Part shown: positions 46,784-61,630 of the stretch, in pieces
Position numbering within the stretch: position 1 is the stretch's first letter
Layout of the letters: each line of letters starts with the position of its first letter
Source: Nitrospiria bacterium
GTDB lineage: Bacteria; Nitrospirota; Nitrospiria; DASWJH01
Direction: 5' to 3'
DNA: 64,000 nt
Assembly: GCA_036397255.1 (NCBI GenBank)
Contig: DASWJH010000087.1
Location: forward strand, 1-64,000
Notes under the pieces: model-generated
What the model saw: the letters and a program-made list of their open reading frames with translations, nothing else
What the model was told of the DNA's origin: nothing
Databases searched by the model: none
Made by a program: the position numbers and the translations under genes

Positions 46784-48463
46784 TCAAAAAAATTCCCCTA
46801 AAGAAACCTCAAAAGCGGAACAGGGAGTGAGAATCCCCCAACGATCCAACACCTCGGGATGAATTTCTCCGAGGAACCCCACCCCTTTACCCTCGATCCG
46901 GATCCGGCCCACACGACCCTCTAAGAAGGAAGGATGGGAAATGGGTTCCAAATCATACACGCAATTCATATAATAAAACAACATTTCCAAATAAGTATGG
47001 GTTTCCGAAAAATTGGCTCCAGGGTGAGCCACCAAAGCACCTAAATTGACCTGGGTTACCGGGTCATCCTCTGGGTGTGTTTTTCGTACCACCTCCCCAA
47101 CCTCAAAAATCTGATGGGGATAGAAAGCTTTGGAGCTTGCTGCTTCCACTTTAAGCAATGAAGGCAGAAGAGAATCCCTTAACACTGCGTAGGTTTCAGA
47201 CATGATATTGTCCACTTCAACCACGCCGCCCCCATCGAGTTGCATCCGTTCGACAATCTCCTCCCGAGAACAAAGAATATTAGAATTCATCTCTTGAAAC
47301 CCCATCCCAATTAAAAAAGTTCGAACCCAATCGGAACACTTTTCCTCCTTGGAAAGATCCCCTACCGTAAAATGAGGGGGCAATTCGGGTTTAAACTGAT
47401 CATACCCCCGGCTAATAGCCACCTCCTCGATCACATCAACGGGATGCATCAAATCATCCCGATAGGGAGGAGCGGTCACTTCCAATTTTTTACCCTTCAG
47501 CTTTACCAAATGCCCAAACCCCTTCAAAAGGCCCATCACTTCTTTGGTTTGAAACCTTTCGGCAAATGCTTTATCAATGTCGGTTAAGGACACACAAAGA
47601 GGTTTTGAAAAGGAAAAAGGCATCCTGACTTTTTTTCCAAAAACGGTTTTCTCAGGGTAGACCACTTCTACAGACTCGATGGAAGCCCCACGGTCAGACA
47701 AGTTAGCTGCCCAAATATTAATGGTAAGGGCCACCATCCGAAGGTCCGTTCCGGTGACCTCCACCAAAAGGTTTTGATCTCCCGCTTTGACCTCCCCCAG
47801 GTCACGGCTATTGATAATGGGGGGAAAAGAAAGGACCTGCTGCTTTTGGTCAATCAGAAGAGGATACCGGTGAGTTCCTTCAAGGATAAACCCATACTCC
47901 TGTCCCTTGGGGTGATTTTTTAAAATTTCCGCCAGCGTCATTTTAAAATCGCAATTTAAAGGAATAAAGGAAACCTGAGAGGGTTCTGCCACTGTATAGG
48001 TTACCGGAAAAGAAATTTTCTCCAAACGGTACAACCCGATTGAAACACTTTCCCTTTTGCGCCCATAAAGATCGGCTAACTTTTCTTGGGTTTGAATGAA
48101 CTGAAGAAGAAGTTGGTCGTCCACCAATAGCCCTTTGGCCACACACCCTCCGATATAAGGCCTGATCGCTTTTGTTCCTGGTTCAACCAGGATTTGAAAA
48201 GGGGCTTTACTTTTTTTCTTTAAAGAAAAAGAGTTCCGGACCTGGGGTGTCAGCTTATACCGGATTTGCCGTGCGATCCCCTCAACACACCAAAGATCAG
48301 GCCGATTGGTATCATTTAATTCCACCCGAAGTTCATCCGTCTCCTCTTGGTAATCTTTAATCTCACCTTTTACCCAAGCCAGGTATTTCTCGATTTTTGG
48401 AACACTCATGGACCTGCCTAAAAGTGCTTCCAGATCTTTTTTGGGAAATTGAATTGTGGGCAT
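46784..48463 (-). CDS. pheT: phenylalanyl-tRNA synthetase beta subunit, archaeal/eukaryal type
   Basis: A 559-residue protein far shorter than the about 800-residue bacterial PheT, with no tRNA-binding or B3/B4-like bacterial layout at the N-terminus. 'VELNDTNRPDLWCVEGIARQIR', 'DLGEVKAGDQNLLVEVTGTD' and 'YRDDLMHPVDVIEEVAISRGY' are the archaeal/eukaryal pattern. It pairs with pheS, 10 nt downstream of it. Together they charge tRNA-Phe as a heterotetramer. Confidence 0.9.
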   Translation of the reverse strand: MPTIQFPKKDLEALLGRSMSVPKIEKYLAWVKGEIKDYQEETDELRVELNDTNRPDLWCVEGIARQIRYKLTPQVRNSFSLKKKSKAPFQILVEPGTKAIRPYIGGCVAKGLLVDDQLLLQFIQTQEKLADLYGRKRESVSIGLYRLEKISFPVTYTVAEPSQVSFIPLNCDFKMTLAEILKNHPKGQEYGFILEGTHRYPLLIDQKQQVLSFPPIINSRDLGEVKAGDQNLLVEVTGTDLRMVALTINIWAANLSDRGASIESVEVVYPEKTVFGKKVRMPFSFSKPLCVSLTDIDKAFAERFQTKEVMGLLKGFGHLVKLKGKKLEVTAPPYRDDLMHPVDVIEEVAISRGYDQFKPELPPHFTVGDLSKEEKCSDWVRTFLIGMGFQEMNSNILCSREEIVERMQLDGGGVVEVDNIMSETYAVLRDSLLPSLLKVEAASSKAFYPHQIFEVGEVVRKTHPEDDPVTQVNLGALVAHPGANFSETHTYLEMLFYYMNCVYDLEPISHPSFLEGRVGRIRIEGKGVGFLGEIHPEVLDRWGILTPCSAFEVSLGEFF

Positions 48464-48473
48464 GAGGTTTTAC

Positions 48474-50045
48474 CTAACCATTCAATTTTTTTGTCCGGAT
48501 AAAATCTAGGTCTACTGAAAAGAGATCCCGTATATCATTAATTTCCAACGCCATCATGGCCATCCGATCCAGACCCAACCCCCATGCAATCACGGGAACG
48601 GAAACACCCAAAGGTAAGGTTACCTCTGGCCGGAAAAGCCCCGCCCCCCCTAACTCCATCCAACCCAGCTGGGGGTGTTTTGCATGGATTTCGACCGATG
48701 GTTCCGTATATGGAAAATAGGCGGGAAGAAATTTTATTTCTTTGGCTCTCGCCATTTCAACCGCAAACAGCTTTAATAGGCCTAATAAGGTCCTAAAATG
48801 GATCCCCTCTCCCAGGACGATCCCTTCCACCTGGTAAAAGTCAGGTGCATGAGTTGCATCCACCTTATCGTACCGAAAACAGCGGGCCAAAGAAAAATAT
48901 TTTCCTGGAATATTGGGCCCGGATGCAAGGGTTCGCGCTGAAACGGCTGTCCCTTGACTCCTTAAAACTAGCCTTTTGGCTCGGTCGTTTTTGAAAGAAT
49001 ATCTCCACCCGGTGGATCCGGTTTTCCCTCCAGTCTCATGTGTTTTTGCCACTTTTTCCAAAATATCCTTTGGAAGTCTTCTGGAGTTTTTGGGATCACG
49101 AACAAAATAGACGTCGTGAATGGCCCGCGCCGGATGAAACTGTGGCATAAACAGAGCATCACTATTCCAAAATTCGCTCTCCACCAACCCTCCTCTCATT
49201 TCCTGAAAACCCATCCCCACCAATTTCATTTTAATGGTGTCCAAAAATTCTCGGTAGGGATGCTTTCGGCCCATGGCTGCCCTGGAAGGTTTCAGCGTAA
49301 TATTATAATGACGAAAAGTCTTATTTCTCCAACTCCCCTCCTTCAGCATTTCAGGGGTAAGCTGGGTAATTTCCTCCTGTGCAAAACGATCGAGGTCCAG
49401 TTCACCAATGATCTTTTTCCCAAAAACCGTTAAATGGTAGGATTTGTGACGTTTCTCCTGAAGGCTAAAAATCCCTTTTTTCCCTCGCCCACTGCCGTGT
49501 AAGTTGATAATATTCTTCTCCTGGGAAGAACATGTCTCCAAAACAACACTTTCTTTTTCACTGATATTCTCAACGATTTTTTTTAAATTCTGCCAACGTC
49601 CAACAACTTTTGAATGGTCAATATCCAAACGTTTGAGTTCCAGAACACCTCCCGCTGCAATTTGGATAGACTGATCATTTTTAAGCTCCCCAATGGCTTT
49701 ACTCACATCCAAAGGATCCATTTCACGGCGAAGGCCAGAGATATCCATGGGATTACCGCTTTTCAGTTTTTGAACGATGGTGAGGATTGGAAACCCCTGA
49801 GAGAGGTACTGTCGACCTAATTCTGAAATGGTAACGGTTGTAGTAGACCCAGCGGCTTCGGCAGTCAGGAGATTTTTGGTTAATAACCAACCCATGGCCA
49901 TGGTAAACCGTGATTCATCTAATTGACTGGCTTGCAAGAGGGCTTCCTCTGCAAAAGGGCCGGGACCCCCGAGTTTTATAGCGGACAACAATTTTCCTTC
50001 GAGCGGGTGAAAACTGGCCAGAATATTTTCAATATTTTCTGTCAT
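48474..50045 (-). CDS. pheS: phenylalanyl-tRNA synthetase alpha subunit, archaeal/eukaryal type
   Basis: A 523-residue catalytic subunit, much longer than the about 330-residue bacterial PheS. N-terminal winged-helix domains (about 1-200) precede the class II core, with 'EMRGGLVESEFWNSDALFMPQFHPARAIHDVYFV' landmarks (given in part), 'GMGFQEM', and 'GGAGLFRPEV', 'GLGLDRMAM' (motif 3). A longer frame begins TTG at 50093, but ATG at 50045 is preferred. Confidence 0.92.
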   Translation of the reverse strand: MTENIENILASFHPLEGKLLSAIKLGGPGPFAEEALLQASQLDESRFTMAMGWLLTKNLLTAEAAGSTTTVTISELGRQYLSQGFPILTIVQKLKSGNPMDISGLRREMDPLDVSKAIGELKNDQSIQIAAGGVLELKRLDIDHSKVVGRWQNLKKIVENISEKESVVLETCSSQEKNIINLHGSGRGKKGIFSLQEKRHKSYHLTVFGKKIIGELDLDRFAQEEITQLTPEMLKEGSWRNKTFRHYNITLKPSRAAMGRKHPYREFLDTIKMKLVGMGFQEMRGGLVESEFWNSDALFMPQFHPARAIHDVYFVRDPKNSRRLPKDILEKVAKTHETGGKTGSTGWRYSFKNDRAKRLVLRSQGTAVSARTLASGPNIPGKYFSLARCFRYDKVDATHAPDFYQVEGIVLGEGIHFRTLLGLLKLFAVEMARAKEIKFLPAYFPYTEPSVEIHAKHPQLGWMELGGAGLFRPEVTLPLGVSVPVIAWGLGLDRMAMMALEINDIRDLFSVDLDFIRTKKLNG

Positions 50046-50238
50046 AAAAAAAAACGAACCCCTTAAAATACTCGCCTGTGAAGGGGTACCCAAGTCTAAA
50101 AATCGCCGAAATATATTTGAAGCGGAAAAATACGATAACGGGTTTAGAGACGACTGTCAAGAAAAAGTCCCAATAAAAAAGGGTGCCGGGAGGATCTCGA
50201 AAAAAAAATTGGGAGAGCGAGAAGGGGTGTTCAGGAAA

Positions 50239-50787
50239 TTACAGGGGACCTGGATTTCCTTTAAAGTAAGCTTCCTCATCGTCCGTCAACGTTCGATCCT
50301 TTGGAAAAGGAGGGGGTGATGGGTATGATTCCATTTTCCTTGTCCACTGAGGTTGAATGAATAAACCGCTTTCACCACCAACCGCAAGGTACATAAAAGT
50401 GAAAAATTCCGGCGATAAGGTTAATACCTTCAAATGTTTTTCAAAACTGGGAGGGACCTGTGGGATCACCAATAACAGGCGGGGGTTCAACGTAGGAATC
50501 AAGAGGCTTTGGGGAATCAACTGGCTGATGAGGGGAAGATGGTTGGATAGCCAATCCAAATGTTCTAAAGCCTGAAACAAAATTTTTTCATCGGAAACAA
50601 TATCATATTCAATCATTACGGCTCGGCCTGTTCCATCCCGTGCAAGAAAAAACGAAGCGGAAGAAGATGGAGGAAGAATAGAGGAGTGAACCGGTTTTAG
50701 CCCGGGTTCAATCATATCTAGGTGTTGTAGGAGAAGCCTTTCTAACGATTGCCGTTCGGCTAGGGGAACCCTCTGAAATTTCAGCAT
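50239..50787 (-). CDS. small protein of the ParA cluster, decayed nuclease-like fold
   Basis: A 182-residue protein. The segment 'HLDMIEPGLKPV', a hydrophobic strand 'ASFFLARDGTGRAVMIEYDI' and 'KILFQALEHLDWLSNHL' resemble the core of NucS/PD-(D/E)XK-type nucleases. Where the active site should be, the first Asp is absent and E-x-K reads E-Y-D, so activity is unlikely. It overlaps the preceding gene by 7 nt. The fold assignment is tentative. The role in the cluster is unknown. Confidence 0.55.
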   Translation of the reverse strand: MLKFQRVPLAERQSLERLLLQHLDMIEPGLKPVHSSILPPSSSASFFLARDGTGRAVMIEYDIVSDEKILFQALEHLDWLSNHLPLISQLIPQSLLIPTLNPRLLLVIPQVPPSFEKHLKVLTLSPEFFTFMYLAVGGESGLFIQPQWTRKMESYPSPPPFPKDRTLTDDEEAYFKGNPGPL

Positions 50788-51710
50788 GATTTTACCAATG
50801 TTTGGCTAAACACCTTTTCAAAAAAAGGAGTGGACGCCCCGAAGGGATTAAACCCTTCCCCTTTGATAATCCGTTCACCTAACTGAAACAGGGAATCCGG
50901 TATTGAATCCCAAGGTTTTTTTTCGGACAATCCCCCCGTTTCCTTGGACTTCTGACGGATGATCTGGTGCAAAGGAGGGAGAACTCCCAGGTAACTCATA
51001 CTGGCGCCTAAAAACTTTTTTGTGGCACCGGTCAGTTGTTTGAATGCCTCAACGGTATTTTCCCCTTGATTGGGTTCTGAATATAAAACACCTATATGAA
51101 GGTTTTCATTGGCCTGAAGAACTTGTTTGATCACCCGGTAGGTATCTAACATATAATTTGGGTTGGGAGAGGTAAAAAGCAATAAATCATGCACTAAACT
51201 CGCCCCTAAAAACTGACCTTTGGTCTTTTGAATAGGAACATGGACCAGAAGATACTCAGAGGCAAATTCCTCATCAAGAAGGCCCTGCAGAAAAATTTCC
51301 CGTTCATGGTAGGGAAGGCTATGGAGATCTGACTCTTTCAAGTGGAAGGCCAGCAGATTGATCTGGGATGAAAACTGAACCCTAAAGGGACGCTCCTTTT
51401 CTCCCAAATAATCCTGAATGGAAGAAGCGAGCTTTGGGAAACCCAAAAGGGTTCCCAAATCCGGGGCCTGACCTTTGAAATCCACCATCAACACCTTGGC
51501 CCGATGAAATGCGAGGGAAATGGCTAAAGAAACCAGAAAGGGCCCCGGGGGATACGGAATCAAACTCAACACGGCGAAACTTCTGGGAATTCTTACCATG
51601 CAATGGGGTGCCGCGTAAGGAATCCCCCCACTTTTTTTCTCCTCCTTTTGGGAAATAAAAAGGTGTGAAATTTCATTTAGACCTCGACCCAACCGTTTTT
51701 TATCATCCAC
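50781..51710 (-). CDS. MinD/ParA-fold pseudo-ATPase with ParB-like N-terminus
   Basis: A 309-residue protein. It begins MDDKKRLGRGLNEISHLF; 'KKRLGRGL' is the ParA-contacting N-terminal box known from ParB. From residue 40 a MinD/FlhG-like fold follows: 'SLAISLAFHRAKVLMVDFKGQAPDLGTLLG'-type strands. The P-loop reads 'IPYPPGPFLVSL', with no Lys or Thr, so nucleotide binding is unlikely. It follows the ParA gene by 6 nt. It may be the ParA partner. Inference. Confidence 0.65.
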   Translation of the reverse strand: MDDKKRLGRGLNEISHLFISQKEEKKSGGIPYAAPHCMVRIPRSFAVLSLIPYPPGPFLVSLAISLAFHRAKVLMVDFKGQAPDLGTLLGFPKLASSIQDYLGEKERPFRVQFSSQINLLAFHLKESDLHSLPYHEREIFLQGLLDEEFASEYLLVHVPIQKTKGQFLGASLVHDLLLFTSPNPNYMLDTYRVIKQVLQANENLHIGVLYSEPNQGENTVEAFKQLTGATKKFLGASMSYLGVLPPLHQIIRQKSKETGGLSEKKPWDSIPDSLFQLGERIIKGEGFNPFGASTPFFEKVFSQTLVKSC

Positions 51711-51716
51711 GAATTT

Positions 51717-52796
51717 CTACTCTACCGTTAGGAGGGAATTATATCCTCCTTGATAGTTCTCAACAATTTCTGGGTTGGTGGGATCCTCCCGCCATTGACC
51801 ATCCACAACCAAACGATATTGGTAACGTCCGGGGGATAAATGAAGGATTTTTCTCCAAATCCCCTCTTCCTCCTTAATGGAAAAAACTTTCCGGTCGGGA
51901 ATCCACTCGTTAAAATCCCCCGCAATTCTGACATCTTTGGCTTCGGGTTCCTTAATGGCAATGAGGACGTCACCCTCCCGGCGCATGGGACTGGACAAGG
52001 AGGCCACTTCCTCAGCGGAATCCCTCATCTCATAATGTTGCTCTTCCACCTCCAACACTTCCTTCGCCAGGGCTGAATAATCCTCGTGACCGATGGATTT
52101 GGGGTCGTACTGAGCAATGGGTTGTCCAAAACTGGCCGCCTCCCTCAACCGGATATTGTTACGAATAACGGTTGAGAAAATACGCTTTGGAAAAAATTTC
52201 TCAATCTCCCTTTGAATCTCACGTGAAAAACGGGTTCGGTGATCATTCATTGTTAAAAGGATTTTGATATCCAAAAAATGACTACAGGTGGATTGGACCA
52301 TATCAATGGTTTCGGTCAACTTTCCAAGCCCGTGGAGAGAAAAGAAACTGGTTTCGACAGGAACGATGGCCTCATCAGAAGCCCTTAACGCATTGATGGT
52401 AAGAAGCCCCAAACTGGGAGGGCAGTCAATTAGAATGTAATCATAGGAACGGTCCAGGTCAGCCAACTGTTTTAATAGTTGTTTTTCTCGGGCCTCTGTT
52501 CCAGCAAGAAGTTGTTCGGCAGCACTGAGTAAAAGATTGGAGGGAGCAATACTTAAATAAGGTTGAACATCATGGAGAAGAATTTCATTAATCTGAGCAG
52601 ATCCACATAGAACATCATACATGCTGGATGCACTTTCATCAGGTTTTTGATTTAAACCCAATGTGGCGTGGCCTTGTGGATCTAAATCCAGCAAGAGCAC
52701 GCTGTGCTTTTTAAACGCCAAACAAGCGGCTAAATTGATGGCCGTGGTTGTCTTTCCGCATCCACCCTTTTGGTTTACGATAGAGATAATTCGCAT
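51717..52796 (-). CDS. ParA-family ATPase with C-terminal CBM48/AMPK glycogen-binding domain
   Basis: A 359-residue fusion. Residues 1-255 are a ParA/Soj ATPase: deviant Walker A 'KGGCGKTT', Walker A' 'LLLDLDPQG', Walker B '[11 protein letters not shown]'. Residues about 275-359 are an isoamylase-N/AMPK-beta-like domain: '[17 protein letters not shown]', '[31 protein letters not shown]' landmarks. ParA proteins position DNA or large complexes on the nucleoid; the added domain binds alpha-glucans in other proteins. The ribosome-binding site is AAGGAGGT. Confidence 0.88.
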
Positions 52797-52920
52797 AGTA
52801 CCTCCTTCTAAAGGGCATGGTTATCACCTCCCCATGCGCGTTCAGAGGAAGAATAAAGTCTTCCCCCCTGCTTAGGTAATCTATGGTCTCTTGAGTTAGG
52901 ATTGCGGGTAAAAAATAAAT

Positions 52921-53436
52921 TTAAAGGGATTTAATCCAATCGCGGTTGCGTTTTTCACTCACAACCTTTTTTTTACTTCCCTCCTTTCTCAATAACAAAT
53001 TACGTTTTTTCCTAAAAAGTTTTAGCTTTTGGGATCGCTCAACCCAATTTTCCACATCTCGTTTTAGATCAGAGAGATGAATAATCCATTCTTGCCCGGA
53101 AATAGCCTCAAACAAGGTATTTTCATACAAAACCAGGATCACTTCACCCGAGGCCACCAAGGTCAGTTCAGAAAGTGGAGATTTTATTTTTGGGAGGAAA
53201 GACTGAAGGTTGGCAAGACTCTTTCGGATCCTCTGAAGGGAGATACCAGAATCCAGTAATTTTTTAGCAGTCTTATAGGCAATGAGGTCTTCAAATGAAT
53301 ACCGGGTGTGGCCCCCTCTCGTTTTGAACCGGGAAAGAAATAAACCGCTGGTTCCCCAATACTGAATTTGGCGTTGACTAATTCCAACAATTTCGCAGAC
53401 CTCAGCCTGGGTAAAAAACCTTTTCTCAATTCCCAT
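52921..53436 (-). CDS. MerR-family transcriptional regulator
   Basis: A 171-residue protein. The N-terminal winged helix reads 'FFTQAEVCEIVGISQRQIQYWGTSGLF', followed by 'GGHTRYSFEDLIAYKTAKKLLDSGISLQRIRKSL'. The C-terminal part (about 85-171) is a predicted strand-rich stretch then a basic tail (KKRNLLLRKEGSKKK) that replaces the usual coiled coil. It is 124 bp before the ParA gene on the same strand and may control the cluster. Confidence 0.88.
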   Translation of the reverse strand: MGIEKRFFTQAEVCEIVGISQRQIQYWGTSGLFLSRFKTRGGHTRYSFEDLIAYKTAKKLLDSGISLQRIRKSLANLQSFLPKIKSPLSELTLVASGEVILVLYENTLFEAISGQEWIIHLSDLKRDVENWVERSQKLKLFRKKRNLLLRKEGSKKKVVSEKRNRDWIKSL

Positions 53437-53719
53437 CTTCTGGCCTCTGGAGAACCACTAGCGTATTAAAATACCTTGATTGAAAAAACATGTCAAGGAA
53501 ATTAATACAAATTCTAATAAATATTGTTGTTTTTTTTCTCCAAGGCATTCATTTAATGGATAGATTTTAGGTGCTAAATGAATACAACAAACAACCGTGA
53601 TTGATAAAATTTAAGGCATTTCATCGAGGGAAGGATTTCTCCATAAATGAATGAAATACGTGCTTTTTATTTCTATTAAGGGAGAAAGACCGTTTCCTGG
53701 CTTGAAAAATTCAAATAGG

Positions 53720-55867: not shown

Positions 55868-58800
55868 TTAATTCAAGGTTGCAGGTCTAACCCTTATGAT
55901 ATGAAGGACCCCTTGCAGCCTTTGAATAGAATATAAACTACCCTGAGAATCCGAAGCCAGCGCCACTGTCCCTTGGGCAATTTTTACCTTTGTACCGGTT
56001 ATCGAATCAACCCAGAAAATCTCACCGGTTACCTTATTTAATATAAACAAGGAATCATCCAGGGTAACGGCAATGGCGGTTTGAAACGGCGTGGAAAAAC
56101 CCGATGACAATGAGGTCAAAGAACCCCCCGATGGGATTTTATATAAAATTCCATCAAGCGTACCTGACGTGTAAACATTCGACGCGGTATCCGTTGCAAT
56201 TCCGTTAAAATCGATTCCATTTACAAGAGTCGAAACAGTTCCTTGTGAGTCAATCTGATACACAAAGTCAGCATCGTTTGCCGTATCTCCGCTTGGTGCA
56301 TAGAGGAACCCTGCAGGATCAAAAGCAAGTTGTGTGATGGTCCGAGAAGTATTGGGAAAATCTTCTGCGGGAACAAACACGGTGGCGGTTTCATCCGGGG
56401 TGACTTTAATAATCTTGCTATGGATGCTCGGTACAGAATCGCCCACAAAAAGATTCCCCGCAGGATCAAAAACCAGGGAACGGGCATCAGGAACACTTGA
56501 AAAAGGTGTTATAAACCCACCAGGAGTCACTTTATACACTCCACCATCACCGGTTGTGCCAATGTCCTCCACCGAAGAAACAAAGAAATCCCCTGAAGGA
56601 CTAACGGTCAATCCTAAAACAAGTTCCGGAACTCCGACCAACTCAATTGCTTTAACAAATTCCGCCTTCAGGTTATCAAAATGGGCTTCAATAGGCTGTC
56701 CAGATCTCCGATTAAAGGTCGAAATTTCAATAAATAAGGGGTCCGTTGAAATTCCTGAAATTCCCAGGTAGACCCATTCATTTATGGAACTGTCAAAATA
56801 ATAACCCCAAATTCGATCCTTAGCTCTTTGTAATCTTAATTTACCATTGGAATCGGAAACACCCGAAGCAAGGACAGGGGTGATTGGAGTTCCCCCGAAC
56901 ACACCGCTCAGTTGGTATCCATCTGAGGTTGCATCTTTTATTCTATCGATATAGGTCTCATTTCCCTGTAAGTCTGTCACACCAAACCCAGCCGTCATAA
57001 AGGTTTCTTGCCCAGAAGCTGAAACAGTGGGGAAAATGATCAAATCAAAATCTATAGTAACATCAAAATCCCCCACGAGAATGGCTTGAGAGGAGCGGAT
57101 TTTGGCATGAATTCCTCCTGGAAAACTGGGGGAGACGGAGTTGGATAGTTTCAATACCCCGTCTTCTGAAATTGCACCGCCGTTTCCAATGTCCCCTCCC
57201 AAACTGTCTACGGTTCCGGTAAAATCCACTTGAGTTAAATTAGGAGCCAAACTAGGGTCAGAAAAATCAAATTCAATATAAACGAATTCAATGATCAGGA
57301 CCCCAACCGATACGGTTCCGTATGGAATGGGGGTCACAGGAGCGGAGGTAGCCTGAAAGACCTCACCATTTTGATTCGTGTAACTGGCCATAACGGTAAC
57401 AGACCCTTGGATGGTTGGAACATCCATGATCTGAAAAGTGCCATCGGTTATGGTAAGGGCGGTTTGACCGAAATTGGTGGTGACCGTCGCACCGGAAACA
57501 GGAAAACCTCCATTATCCAATACCCTTCCCGTTACCGTGGTGTTAGGGTCAGGAATGACATTGATTACGACATCGGACGCAACGCCGACATTTCCGGCAA
57601 GATCTATCGCCGTTGCCCCTAATGTGAGGGTACTTGCCCCAACAGGGACCGAAACGTCAAATTCATAGGGCGGGTTCGGATCTGTGAAAACCGTTTGTCC
57701 ATCCACGATAAAGTTTACCGAGACCACTTGGATATAATCCGTTGCCTGTACCGTCAAAGGGAATGAGGTTCCCTCTATGAAGCTGTCCCCCGATGGTGGA
57801 GAAGTAATGGTTACGGTGGGAGCAGTAGAATCCTCAATAAAAAAGATGGTTACAGGCGTAGGAATTCCAAAAGGATAACTGGTGGTATTGGTTCCATTTC
57901 CCAATTGGCCGTTAGCGTTACTCCCCCAGCATTTCGCTGTTCCATTCGACAAAATTGCACAGGAATGTTCTCCCCCCGTTGCTATGATGACTGCGGTGGA
58001 TATTCCGGTAACAGAGACTGGTGTTTTTGCACAATTGTTTGAAAAACAAACCTCGGGGCCTTGCAGGGAACCTGTCCCAATCTGGCCATGATTATTAAGC
58101 CCCCAACACTTTATGGTTTGATCGGCTAAAAGGGCACAGGTATTAGCGCTCCCCGAACTGGAAAGTGCTACCCCTGTAGAGAATCCAATAACCGATCCGG
58201 GATTGAATATGTAATCAGGCGCACCGATATCCCCTGCAAAGGTCCCATTACCCAGTTGCGACCCATTTGATCCCCAACATTTCGCTATTCCATTGGATAA
58301 AAGGGCACAGGTATGGCCATATCCTGCTCCCATAGAAACAACATCAGAAATTCCAGAAACTGAAACAGGCGTTGTACTGCAGGTATAAATTTGACAGGTT
58401 TCAGGCCCGGTATTTATTCCATTGCCAAGTTGCCCCCATTGATTCCAACCCCAACACTTTACTGTTCCATCCTCCAAAATTGCACAAGAATGATTGCCCC
58501 CGGCTACCACCTCAACCGCTGAATTTATTCCCGTTACAGTGACGGGTACATTTGAGGATGTAACCGTTCCGTTTCCAAGAGGCCCAAAATCATTTCTTCC
58601 CCAACACTTCACCGTTCCATCAGAGAGAGCCGCACAAGAGTGATATTCCCCGGCAGCAATATCGATGGCATTGTTTATTCCTATTGCATATGAAGGTAAG
58701 TAGGTTGTGGTATTGTTACCGTTTCCAAGAGTCCCCAGGCCATTGTATCCCCAGCAAAGGACTCTCCCATCTGCTATTATTACACAGCTATGGGAGCTTC

Positions 58801-59779
58801 CCACCGCAATTTTTATCGCTGTTGAAATATTAGGAACCATTAATGGTGTTGATTCAATCCATGGATAATCCCAGTATTTCCCCACCTGACATTGACCGTT
58901 ATATCCCCAGCACTTAACTGTCCCATTGGAAAGTACGGCACACGTGTGGTTTCCTCCAGCCGCTATATCTCGGATATGGCCTACGTTGATGGTCGCAGTG
59001 GTGGTCTCTGAACTGGTCACAACCAGTGTTGTTTCTCCTGGGTTTACTCCTGTGATGGTCACTACCTCCGAAGCACCGGGTTGTAGTTCAATTTGCGTGG
59101 GGGAAACGGTTGCAATAACGGAATTCCCGGTCGATACCGTAAGCTGGGTTGGAAAACCGTCATCGTTTTCAAGGCTTATTGTTGCCGTAGCAGTTCCCCC
59201 ATTAGCCGCCACAAAGATAAGAGAGGGGATAATCACAGTGGTTGGGGCAAGTGGAATAACGGTAAAGTTGAAATTTGCTGTTCCAATCCCGTTATCCACC
59301 TGGACCAATGTCGTCCCGATGGTCGCGGTATCGGAAATCACAAATCGTGCGGTAATGGTTGTGGAATCCTCGATGAGGGGATCGGTGACCGTTATGCCGG
59401 GATTACCTGTTGTTAATGTTGACGCATCGAGATTGGTCCCTATAATTGTCACATCCACCTCGGTTCCCTGCCGCCCGTAATCCGGAGTGATGGAAGCAAG
59501 TGTCGGAGACAAAGATGTCGTGGTCTCCCGTGTGATTTCCAACAAATTTCCAACAGGATCATAATGATAGGTCCCCACATTGCCTGAACCGTCGATGACA
59601 CGGAACAAGCGGCCGAGTTCATCGTAGACATATTGCGCTTGTTCTGCCTGACCAACAACAGGATAGCAGAGGGATAAAAGTAGAAGCAAAAAACTTCCAA
59701 AAAGTTTTAATTTTAAATTTCTATTATGATTGCTATTCGGCAACATTTTTATCTTTTTAAATTGACTTTTAAAACCCAT
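55868..59779 (-). CDS. secreted chimeric giant protein with YD, IPT/TIG, RCC1 and beta-propeller parts
   Basis: A 1303-residue surface protein. After a signal peptide (about 25-45) come two YD repeats ('YVYDELGRLFRVIDGSGNVGTYHYDPVGNLL' type), one IPT/TIG and one Ig-like module, then about seven RCC1 repeats (pattern 'AAG..HTCAVLSNGTVKCWG.N..GQLGNGT', about 270-660), Ig/carboxypeptidase-regulatory modules, and a C-terminal NHL/SMP-like propeller ('KVTPGG', 'FDPAGNLFVGDS'). The YD start suggests recombination with an RHS gene. It follows the immunity-like gene by 10 nt. Confidence 0.82.
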   Translation of the reverse strand: MGFKSQFKKIKMLPNSNHNRNLKLKLFGSFLLLLLSLCYPVVGQAEQAQYVYDELGRLFRVIDGSGNVGTYHYDPVGNLLEITRETTTSLSPTLASITPDYGRQGTEVDVTIIGTNLDASTLTTGNPGITVTDPLIEDSTTITARFVISDTATIGTTLVQVDNGIGTANFNFTVIPLAPTTVIIPSLIFVAANGGTATATISLENDDGFPTQLTVSTGNSVIATVSPTQIELQPGASEVVTITGVNPGETTLVVTSSETTTATINVGHIRDIAAGGNHTCAVLSNGTVKCWGYNGQCQVGKYWDYPWIESTPLMVPNISTAIKIAVGSSHSCVIIADGRVLCWGYNGLGTLGNGNNTTTYLPSYAIGINNAIDIAAGEYHSCAALSDGTVKCWGRNDFGPLGNGTVTSSNVPVTVTGINSAVEVVAGGNHSCAILEDGTVKCWGWNQWGQLGNGINTGPETCQIYTCSTTPVSVSGISDVVSMGAGYGHTCALLSNGIAKCWGSNGSQLGNGTFAGDIGAPDYIFNPGSVIGFSTGVALSSSGSANTCALLADQTIKCWGLNNHGQIGTGSLQGPEVCFSNNCAKTPVSVTGISTAVIIATGGEHSCAILSNGTAKCWGSNANGQLGNGTNTTSYPFGIPTPVTIFFIEDSTAPTVTITSPPSGDSFIEGTSFPLTVQATDYIQVVSVNFIVDGQTVFTDPNPPYEFDVSVPVGASTLTLGATAIDLAGNVGVASDVVINVIPDPNTTVTGRVLDNGGFPVSGATVTTNFGQTALTITDGTFQIMDVPTIQGSVTVMASYTNQNGEVFQATSAPVTPIPYGTVSVGVLIIEFVYIEFDFSDPSLAPNLTQVDFTGTVDSLGGDIGNGGAISEDGVLKLSNSVSPSFPGGIHAKIRSSQAILVGDFDVTIDFDLIIFPTVSASGQETFMTAGFGVTDLQGNETYIDRIKDATSDGYQLSGVFGGTPITPVLASGVSDSNGKLRLQRAKDRIWGYYFDSSINEWVYLGISGISTDPLFIEISTFNRRSGQPIEAHFDNLKAEFVKAIELVGVPELVLGLTVSPSGDFFVSSVEDIGTTGDGGVYKVTPGGFITPFSSVPDARSLVFDPAGNLFVGDSVPSIHSKIIKVTPDETATVFVPAEDFPNTSRTITQLAFDPAGFLYAPSGDTANDADFVYQIDSQGTVSTLVNGIDFNGIATDTASNVYTSGTLDGILYKIPSGGSLTSLSSGFSTPFQTAIAVTLDDSLFILNKVTGEIFWVDSITGTKVKIAQGTVALASDSQGSLYSIQRLQGVLHIIRVRPATLN

Positions 59780-59789
59780 ATATTTCCTG

Positions 59790-60086
59790 CTAATTTCTTT
59801 CTAAAAAAAAATTCCACCCCCATCTCCCAATTAATCCAATTGTTCCGTAAACCAAAACATTAACTCCAATGGACAAAACCCAAACAAAAAAATCTCCAGG
59901 CCAGAAATTTTCTCCTGGTAGGTTGGTTAGATGCAACCAAAAAGAAGACGGCCATAAATATCGCCAAATTAAAAAGGTTTTGGGGACATCTCCAGGATTT
60001 GAATACATTTCAAATCGAATAGCCAAAATAAGTAAGATGGGAACGATAAAGCCTATTCCTCCGAATACCATTAAAACCTTCTTCAT
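59790..60086 (-). CDS. small membrane protein, likely RHS immunity protein
   Basis: A 98-residue protein with about three membrane helices (residues 3-22, 40-54, 66-88). No family recognised. It overlaps the RHS gene stop by ATGA, the position typical of immunity genes next to polymorphic toxins. Immunity function is inferred only from this. Confidence 0.6.
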   Translation of the reverse strand: MKKVLMVFGGIGFIVPILLILAIRFEMYSNPGDVPKTFLIWRYLWPSSFWLHLTNLPGENFWPGDFFVWVLSIGVNVLVYGTIGLIGRWGWNFFLERN

Positions 60087-61630
60087 GTTTTTTTCCTCAG
60101 AATCTCTTCCAATTCAAATATAAACAAACCTGGATCAATTGTATTAGGAGCTTTTAATCCACCCGCTTTCAAAACGTCCGAAGCAAAGGTTGCACAGTTC
60201 CGACCATACAGTTTATATTTTCCAGGGTTCACCAAGCGATTAAAAATTACTGCTTCCATTGCTTTATCTTGTTTAGGAGATGTTTTAATCGTAATTATTT
60301 TTGTAGGTTTACCTATGTCAAATTTCAACTCACCTGAAGTTTCAAAACCTCCAAAAACCCATAATCTTGTTAATAAGTCTTGTTTTTGTGGATAAAACCC
60401 AACGGTTCCCTTGCTATTTACACCAACCCCTATATGTGTAGCAAAAGTAGGATAATATGCAAGAGTCACATCTAGACCAAAAGGGTCGATATATTTTACG
60501 GGGTTATTCAAAACATACGCATATAAATTTATATCCCCTCCAGCAAAACCAATTGGATCTTTTGAAATGAACCTGTGGAATGTCGTGCCGTAGTATCTGG
60601 TGCGGTGATAATACGTTCCGGCGCCATCATTCTCCCTTCCCGCATATTGAAAAGGATTCAGGGAAGTACCGTTTATCGTCGTTTTTCCAAACGCCTCATA
60701 TTCATAAGTTGTATCTATTAACCCAGAGGAATCTGAAAGCACCAAGCTGCTTCCTAAAACATCAGTATGGTAAAACTCATTCTCTCCTGCCTGCCGAACA
60801 AATGGTTCATCAATATTAAGACTCCTAAGGTATGTCACATCGATCGAGCTTCCTCCAGCCTCAGCCACAATATCATTCCCGTCATATTGAAAATCCGTCA
60901 CCACTCCGTTAATGGTTTTACTGATTCTCCTCCCCAAAGCATCATATACAAAACTCGCACTCACCCCAGGGCCACTGATTGCAACAAGCCTATTTCTAGC
61001 ATCCCACATGTACGTTGTCGTTCCACTTGCATCAGTCTGGGAAATTAGATTCCAACTGGCATCATAGGTCAGATTCGGTGTTGGATTATTAAATTGGATC
61101 TGCTCATTTGCCGCATCGTAAGCAGCCTGGACTGCATCGGGAAGTAACGTTGCCGTTCCATTTGTTCGGGTAAAGGAGATCCGATTTCCGGCGGCATCGT
61201 AGGTATAATTTAATCGTTCAATAAGTTGTTGAGTTGATGTGTTTAAGTGTTCAATTTGTAATATACGGGATGCTTGATCATAGGAGTAAGAGGTTTCAAC
61301 ACCGTTGGGGTAACTTAGAGAAGTCCGACGCCCCGCCGCATCATATCCAAGTCCCACAACCTGAGTTCCCTGGGTCACTTGAGTCAGGCGCGAGGCAGAA
61401 TCGTATTGATAAGAGACAGGTGTTTGGCCGTTGACAATCATATTAGTTCGCCTGCCAATGGTGTCGTATAGGTATTCTACAGTTCCTTGAGGGGTTAACT
61501 CTTGAGTCAGACGGTCAAGACCGTCATACCCAAACTCTATTCTCCCGGAAGTGGAATCCCCAGCGGCGGTCAACCTCCCCGCGGTATCATAAGTGAATGA
61601 AGTGGGACTTCCGTCATCGTACTGAGACAA
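60083..61630 (-). CDS. orphan RHS/YD-repeat protein with C-terminal toxin-like domain
   Basis: A 515-residue RHS-type fragment with a TTG start. YD repeats fill residues 1-340. The RHS core end 'RFISKDPIGFAGGDINLYAY' and 'NPVKYIDPFGLD' lead to a C-terminal domain (about 390-515). This has a His in 'FATHIGVGV' (near 398) and a Cys in 'YGRNCATFASDVLKAGG' (near 476), resembling the Cys/His pair of NlpC/P60- or LRAT-like enzymes. In-frame YD sequence continues upstream to 61726, where a TGA stops it, so the RHS body is missing. Confidence 0.8.
   Translation of the reverse strand: MSQYDDGSPTSFTYDTAGRLTAAGDSTSGRIEFGYDGLDRLTQELTPQGTVEYLYDTIGRRTNMIVNGQTPVSYQYDSASRLTQVTQGTQVVGLGYDAAGRRTSLSYPNGVETSYSYDQASRILQIEHLNTSTQQLIERLNYTYDAAGNRISFTRTNGTATLLPDAVQAAYDAANEQIQFNNPTPNLTYDASWNLISQTDASGTTTYMWDARNRLVAISGPGVSASFVYDALGRRISKTINGVVTDFQYDGNDIVAEAGGSSIDVTYLRSLNIDEPFVRQAGENEFYHTDVLGSSLVLSDSSGLIDTTYEYEAFGKTTINGTSLNPFQYAGRENDGAGTYYHRTRYYGTTFHRFISKDPIGFAGGDINLYAYVLNNPVKYIDPFGLDVTLAYYPTFATHIGVGVNSKGTVGFYPQKQDLLTRLWVFGGFETSGELKFDIGKPTKIITIKTSPKQDKAMEAVIFNRLVNPGKYKLYGRNCATFASDVLKAGGLKAPNTIDPGLFIFELEEILRKKT

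What the first reader, a model, noticed from the sequence alone, without database searches (positions are those of the whole stretch)
50239..53436. Candidate uncharacterised ParA-type positioning system with a carbohydrate-binding ATPase
Seen: a ParA ATPase (51717-52796) with intact Walker motifs fused to a CBM48/AMPK-type glycogen-binding domain. It is followed by a MinD-fold protein with no P-loop lysine but starting with a ParB-like 'KKRLGRGL' box, then by a small decayed-nuclease-like protein, all after a MerR regulator on one strand. Known: ParB N-termini with this box stimulate ParA, and ParA/McdA systems place plasmids, carboxysomes and other cargo. Inference: the fusion ties glycogen or another alpha-glucan granule to nucleoid-based placement, with the pseudo-ATPase as activator. 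An alternative is a metabolite-sensing chromosome partition system.
Basis: partly seen in the sequence, partly recalled or inferred. Interest (0 to 1): 0.85.

Follow-up and report, generated by a model that had tools for sequence, protein, structure and literature searches.

The report
ParA motor fused to glycogen-binding domain
A bacterial DNA-surfing ATPase of the kind that positions cell cargo is fused to a glycogen-binding domain and encoded with two dead-enzyme partners, a set kept intact in distantly related bacteria and in some of them placed beside a glycogen-branching enzyme gene, so it may be an undescribed system that places or senses the cell's sugar stores.

Summary
The window encodes, on one strand, a MerR-type regulator, a ParA ATPase ending in an AMPK-type glycogen-binding module, a MinD-fold pseudo-ATPase starting with a ParB-like 'KKRLGRGL' box, and a small decayed nuclease. 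ParA, pseudo-ATPase and small protein overlap or abut. The pseudo-ATPase is FlhG/FleN-like without a P-loop; the small protein is NucS/EndoMS-like without its active site. I found the pseudo-ATPase in 24 genomes: Nitrospiria-like relatives, Omnitrophota, Zixibacteria-labelled MAGs and two related MAGs. The small protein always follows; ParA immediately precedes in 23. MerR belongs only in eight. ParA carries the CBM in 13 of 23 loci (and in 3 genomes without the pseudo-ATPase), and the two key glucan-stacking tryptophans are invariant in all 16 CBMs. Best reading: a ParA-type positioning (or sensing) system tied to alpha-glucan, activated by the pseudo-ATPase's N-terminus. Glucan cargo is inferred: ten loci lack the CBM, and this genome lacks GH57 and DUF4912. 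I found no description in the papers searched.

The parts
52921..53436 (-). MerR-type regulator with a conserved C-terminal domain (P0004); accessory, present in own, f5 and f8 genomes only
   Evidence: Pfam MerR_1 49.6 bits; 49-53% identity to seven homologues at the same place; absent upstream in f4, Omnitrophota, Zixibacteria-labelled, G507 and G843 loci
51717..52796 (-). ParA-type ATPase with C-terminal AMPK-type glycogen-binding module (P0001)
   Evidence: AAA_31 187 bits, AMPK1_CBM 44.9 bits; full-length relatives about 43-54% identical in f6, Zixibacteria-labelled, Omnitrophota and G507/G843 genomes; one clade apart from canonical ParA, 100/100
51717..51944 (-). The CBM (residues ~285-359); glucan-stacking Trp298 and Trp335 kept in all 16 ParA-CBMs
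   Evidence: Closest solved relatives are AMPK beta-2 and beta-1 glycogen-binding domains, E 8e-9; residue table
50781..51710 (-). MinD-fold (FlhG/FleN-like) pseudo-ATPase without P-loop (P0002)
   Evidence: Profile hit 4rz2 FlhG 3e-28; AF2/Foldseek FlhG 1.4e-14; 24 loci
51648..51710 (-). N-terminal ParB-like box KKRLGRGLNEISHLFIS, predicted disordered; putative ParA-activating peptide
   Evidence: I14, S15, F18, L19 and S20 invariant or nearly so in 17 sequences; pLDDT 43-45 over residues 1-20; own ParB begins MQRKPLGKGIGALF
50239..50787 (-). NucS/EndoMS-like pseudonuclease (P0003), overlapping the end of P0002
   Evidence: AF2/Foldseek EndoMS 3.5e-4; profile hit NucS 0.0035; follows the pseudo-ATPase in 24 of 24 loci
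53468..53496 (-). Sigma-70-like promoter TTGACA-N17-TATTTT upstream of merR, likely start of the transcript
   Evidence: Consensus scan, 10 of 12 (about 5 such sites expected by chance in the region); a TTGACt-N17-TATTAT promoter sits at the same place in f5 loci

Best explanation
This is a ParA/MinD-class positioning system tied to intracellular alpha-glucan. The ParA dimerises on ATP and binds the nucleoid; its C-terminal CBM binds glycogen or a glycogen-making complex. The pseudo-MinD protein, bound to the pseudo-nuclease, reaches ParA with its disordered basic N-terminal 'KKRLGRGL..ISHLF' peptide and triggers ATP hydrolysis, releasing ParA from DNA, so that glucan particles or the synthetic complex are kept spread over the nucleoid or shared at division. 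In some Omnitrophota a second box-bearing protein (DUF4912), encoded beside the GH57 branching enzyme, is the activator on the glucan-synthesis side. Shown here: gene order, domain identities, lost and kept motifs, genomic linkage to branching enzyme. Inferred: DNA binding, glucan binding, peptide activation, cargo.
For: Three-gene core conserved across distant lineages. ParAs form one clade apart from canonical ParA (100/100), with CBM gain and loss needing 3 changes, e.g. one gain and two losses. CBM nearest to AMPK beta; both stacking Trp invariant in 16/16, K/R and mostly N kept. ParB-like box at the pseudo-MinD N-terminus, disordered in the model; partner proteins of ParA/MinD ATPases generally use a charged disordered N-terminus (PMC10241942), and ParB's N-terminal motif of hydrophobics around one basic residue is needed and sufficient to bind ParA (PMC12462528). 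GH57 branching enzyme (PF03065 + BE_C) downstream in 8/8 assessable Omnitrophota and about 120 bp after the small gene in G503. DUF4912 proteins beside GH57 bear the same box in 5 of 8 Omnitrophota. GlgA and GlgC present in this genome. The genome has a separate canonical ParAB, so this is not the chromosome-segregation ParA.
Against: No biochemistry. In f4, f5 and f8 loci ParA lacks a CBM, and those genomes that were scanned have no AMPK-type CBM at all, so glucan cannot reach ParA this way there. This genome has no GH57 or DUF4912; GlgB and GlgP were not found in the 40% of it that I could read. Synteny among Omnitrophota is partly shared ancestry. In known systems the cargo adaptor is the partner, not ParA, so a CBM on ParA is unusual. 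f6 genomes have ParA-CBM without the pseudo-MinD.
Confidence: 0.47

Rival explanations
1. Glucan-sensing switch, not a transporter: the CBM reports the glycogen store (as in AMPK) and gates the ParA ATPase or its partner, which then controls gene expression (through MerR in Nitrospiria) or enzyme activity.
For: AMPK-type CBM; the pseudo-MinD is closest to FleN/FlhG, which in solved complexes acts on the transcription factor FleQ; MerR co-encoded in own, f5 and f8 genomes.
Against: ParB-like activating box and ParA-type ATPase fit a nucleoid ratchet better; MerR absent in most CBM-bearing loci; the CBM is absent where MerR is commonest (f5).
Confidence: 0.23
2. A ParA positioning system for another cargo (for example a pilus, polar or envelope complex); the CBM is a protein-protein module or a dispensable add-on.
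For: 10 of 23 trio ParAs lack the CBM; Omnitrophota loci have a pilin-like gene just upstream; f6 ParA-CBM sits by a patatin-like gene.
Against: Both glucan-stacking Trp invariant in 16/16 CBMs; GH57 and box-bearing DUF4912 linkage; the pilin link is confined to Omnitrophota.
Confidence: 0.18
3. A chromosome or plasmid partition (ParABS-like) variant whose centromere binder is MerR or the NucS-like protein.
For: ParA plus ParB-like box; MerR as DNA binder in eight loci; NucS-type fold in P0003.
Against: Canonical ParAB already present; no ParB/Srx domain in P0002; no plasmid record with a credible P0002 relative; loci sit among chromosomal housekeeping genes; MerR not in the core.
Confidence: 0.08

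Closest known systems
ParA/MinD cargo-positioning systems (ParABS, McdAB for carboxysomes, PpfA/TlpT, PomXYZ)
   Same: Deviant Walker ATPase plus a co-encoded partner with a short basic hydrophobic N-terminal peptide; two box-bearing partners in some Omnitrophota recall PomX/PomY as two activators (PMC13170346, abstract only)
   Different: ATPase fused to a glycogen-binding module; partner is a degenerate FlhG/MinD fold; third protein is a NucS-like pseudonuclease; no ParB/Srx domain or McdB-like partner seen
FlhG/FleN (MinD-like ATPase)
   Same: Fold of P0002 and closest solved sequence relatives
   Different: P0002 has no P-loop and has a ParB-like N-terminal box; not in a flagellar gene context, unlike the FlhG-type hit in L201
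AMPK beta-subunit glycogen-binding domain (PF16561)
   Same: C-terminal module of P0001, both stacking Trp, Lys/Arg and Asn kept in this protein
   Different: Fused to ParA, not to a kinase complex; the L144 and T146 positions vary
NucS/EndoMS endonuclease C-terminal domain
   Same: Fold of P0003
   Different: Catalytic D...E-x-K not kept in any of 17 sequences; N-terminal domain absent

Membership tests
ParA/MinD deviant-Walker ATPases | Deviant Walker A (KGGxxK[T/S]) with signature lysine, and the DxDPQ and Walker B motifs | tested here: met
   [31 protein letters not shown]_31 187 bits
ParA/MinD deviant-Walker ATPases | ATP-dependent dimer that binds DNA (ParA) or membrane (MinD) | not testable with these tools
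   C-terminus is a CBM, with no room for a terminal MinD membrane helix (inference); DNA binding needs biochemistry
ParABS partition | ParB partner with ParB/Srx CTPase fold and DNA-binding domain | tested here: not met
   P0002 has no Pfam domain and a MinD/FlhG fold
ParABS partition | Partner with N-terminal ParA-binding motif (hydrophobics around a central K/R) | tested here: met
   KKRLGRGLNEISHLF compared with own ParB RKPLGKGIGALF (motif described in PMC12462528); activity untested
ParABS partition | parS centromere sites | not tested
   No search for binding sites beyond inverted repeats near merR
AMPK-type CBM (CBM48 clan) | Score above Pfam cut-off | tested here: met
   PF16561 44.9 against 26.8; 50-60 bits in three other lineages
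AMPK-type CBM (CBM48 clan) | Glucan-contact residues W, K, W, L, T, N of AMPK beta | tested here: inconclusive
   W and W 16/16, K or R 16/16, N 13/16; L and T positions vary. Binding itself not testable
FlhG/MinD ATPases (for P0002) | Functional P-loop | tested here: not met
   No GKT in any of 17 sequences
NucS/EndoMS nucleases (for P0003) | Catalytic D...E-x-K | tested here: not met
   E-x-K replaced in all 17 sequences

The most novel reading that the evidence does not exclude
A previously undescribed class of ParA system whose cargo is a storage polysaccharide: glycogen (or the branching-enzyme/DUF4912 glucan-synthesis complex) is tethered directly to a nucleoid-surfing ATPase through a glycogen-binding domain, with hydrolysis triggered by a ParB-like peptide carried by a dead MinD/FlhG paralogue and, in some Omnitrophota, also by the glucan-synthesis protein DUF4912.
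Probability: 0.37. Interest if true: 0.9.

Novelty: new variant of a known kind. Interest (0 to 1): 0.75.

Why it matters
How bacteria place and share out storage granules is poorly known, and the ParA/MinD-glycogen combination gave no relevant paper in the library searched. A ParA carrying its own glucan-binding domain would extend ParA cargo from DNA, protein organelles and machines to a carbohydrate polymer. It gives DUF4912, found beside the branching enzyme in several lineages, a first functional lead, and shows a pseudo-ATPase carrying a ParB-like peptide, a new partner architecture. Each step can be tested with purified proteins.

Tried and rejected
Weak P0002 hits (75-130 bits) looked like wide spread but nearly all lack the N-terminal box; the one examined (L201) sits among flagellar genes, so they are FlhG-type and not counted. 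Plasmid partition: no credible plasmid relatives. Being the chromosomal ParA: rejected, canonical ParAB is on another contig. MerR as a core part: rejected, absent outside own, f5 and f8. GH57 in this genome: none. DUF4912 box in Nitrospiria and Zixibacteria-labelled genomes: absent. Inverted repeats in this window near merR and parA: weak. Paper searches for ParA with glycogen, CBM48 or storage granules gave nothing relevant.

Full report
Observation. The four minus-strand genes are at 53436-52921 (MerR-type), 52796-51717 (ParA), 51710-50781 (pseudo-ATPase, GTG start) and 50787-50239 (small protein). ParA and the pseudo-ATPase are 6 bp apart; the pseudo-ATPase and the small gene overlap by 7 bp. 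ParA has intact motifs and an AMPK-type glycogen-binding module, AMPK1_CBM 44.9 bits against a cut-off of 26.8; its closest solved relatives are the AMPK beta-2 and beta-1 domains, E 8e-9.

The two partners. P0002 has no Pfam match, but a profile of its family finds FlhG (3e-28), FleN and MinD, and the AF2 model matches FlhG (Foldseek 1.4e-14). The P-loop is missing in every member. Residues 1-37 are low-confidence, hence probably disordered, and start KKRLGRGLNEISHLF. The genome's own ParB starts MQRKPLGKGIGALF. ParB's N-terminal peptide, hydrophobics around one basic residue, is what binds ParA and triggers hydrolysis (PMC12462528), and partners of ParA/MinD ATPases in general act through a charged disordered N-terminus (PMC10241942). 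P0003 has the fold of the NucS/EndoMS nuclease domain without its catalytic residues.

Distribution. Among 270 genomes of the class, true P0002 relatives (over 300 bits) occur in 11 including this one (families f1, f4, f5, f8), against FlhG-type hits below about 110 bits; none appeared outside the class in 396 genomes drawn from the phylum. A scan of one genome per GTDB species, which used a single conserved box pattern and so is a lower bound, added two MAGs labelled Zixibacteria, three Omnitrophota and one labelled Pseudomonadota; Omnitrophota gave 9 of 334, and a relative of the last MAG one more. In total 24 loci. The small gene follows in 24 of 24, ParA precedes in 23; in G751 a pilin gene lies where ParA would be. 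MerR is present in 8 loci, all Nitrospiria-like.

The CBM. ParA-CBM is found in this genome, 2 Zixibacteria-labelled MAGs, 8 Omnitrophota, G507 and G843, and also in three f6 genomes without the pseudo-ATPase. These and the CBM-less trio ParAs form one clade apart from canonical ParAs (100/100), with CBM gain and loss needing three changes, for example one gain and two losses. Both stacking tryptophans are invariant in 16 of 16, the lysine position is K or R in all, the asparagine in 13.

Glucan context. In the eight Omnitrophota loci long enough, the order is pilin, ParA-CBM, pseudo-MinD, small gene, YfiH-like, DUF4912, then GH57 branching enzyme (with two extra genes before GH57 in G673); in G503 the GH57 gene follows the small gene by about 120 bp. 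DUF4912 of five Omnitrophota carries the same 'KLGKGLxDISxLF' box in a basic N-terminus. Elsewhere DUF4912 sits next to GH57 and often GlgA but without the box. Glycogen synthase is present in 19 of 20 system genomes (only weakly in G507), but also in 12 of 14 controls, so this is a consistency check only. This genome has GlgA and GlgC but no GH57 or DUF4912.

Reading. Sequence and context favour a ParA-class system linked to alpha-glucan, with the pseudo-MinD as activator. Steps shown: domains, motifs, gene order, linkage. Steps inferred: nucleoid binding, glucan binding, activation, cargo. The absence of the CBM in ten loci means the core may serve another function, or lost its glucan tether, in those lineages; a sensor role remains open.

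Novelty. The ATPase class, the CBM and both partner folds are known; their combination, a pseudo-ATPase bearing a ParB-like peptide, and a ParA bearing a glycogen-binding domain were not found in the papers searched, though the library is incomplete. All genomes named are MAGs, so tests need heterologous expression.

Noticed in passing
window 46784-48463 and 48474-50093 (-): Phenylalanine-tRNA ligase of the archaeal type: pheT_arch TIGR00471 499.9 bits and PRK04172 545.9 bits, in a bacterial genome.
   Followed up: no
L039-L044 upstream of merR: f5 loci share a GCACATcTT-N6-AAxATGTGC type palindrome just upstream of a TTGACt-N17-TATTAT promoter; a likely operator, absent in this window.
   Followed up: partly
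L084, L085, L086: ParA-CBM without the pseudo-MinD and small gene, followed by a patatin-like phospholipase gene.
   Followed up: partly
G004:C34, G011:C117, G005:C17, G019:C50, G503:C56, G507:C227: DUF4912 protein encoded next to a GH57 branching enzyme in several lineages, often with GlgA, suggesting that DUF4912 works in alpha-glucan synthesis.
   Followed up: partly
L246 3562-3909 and L250 7872-8351: Stand-alone AMPK-type CBM proteins about 2 kb upstream of ParA-CBM in G843 and G507.
   Followed up: no
L187 (G751): Pseudo-MinD and small gene without ParA; a pilin gene sits where ParA would be. The contig is only 3 kb, so ParA may be elsewhere.
   Followed up: no
window 60083-61630 (-): YD-repeat/RHS-core protein; the large ORF 55868-59779 next to it matches no NCBIfam model.
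   Followed up: no
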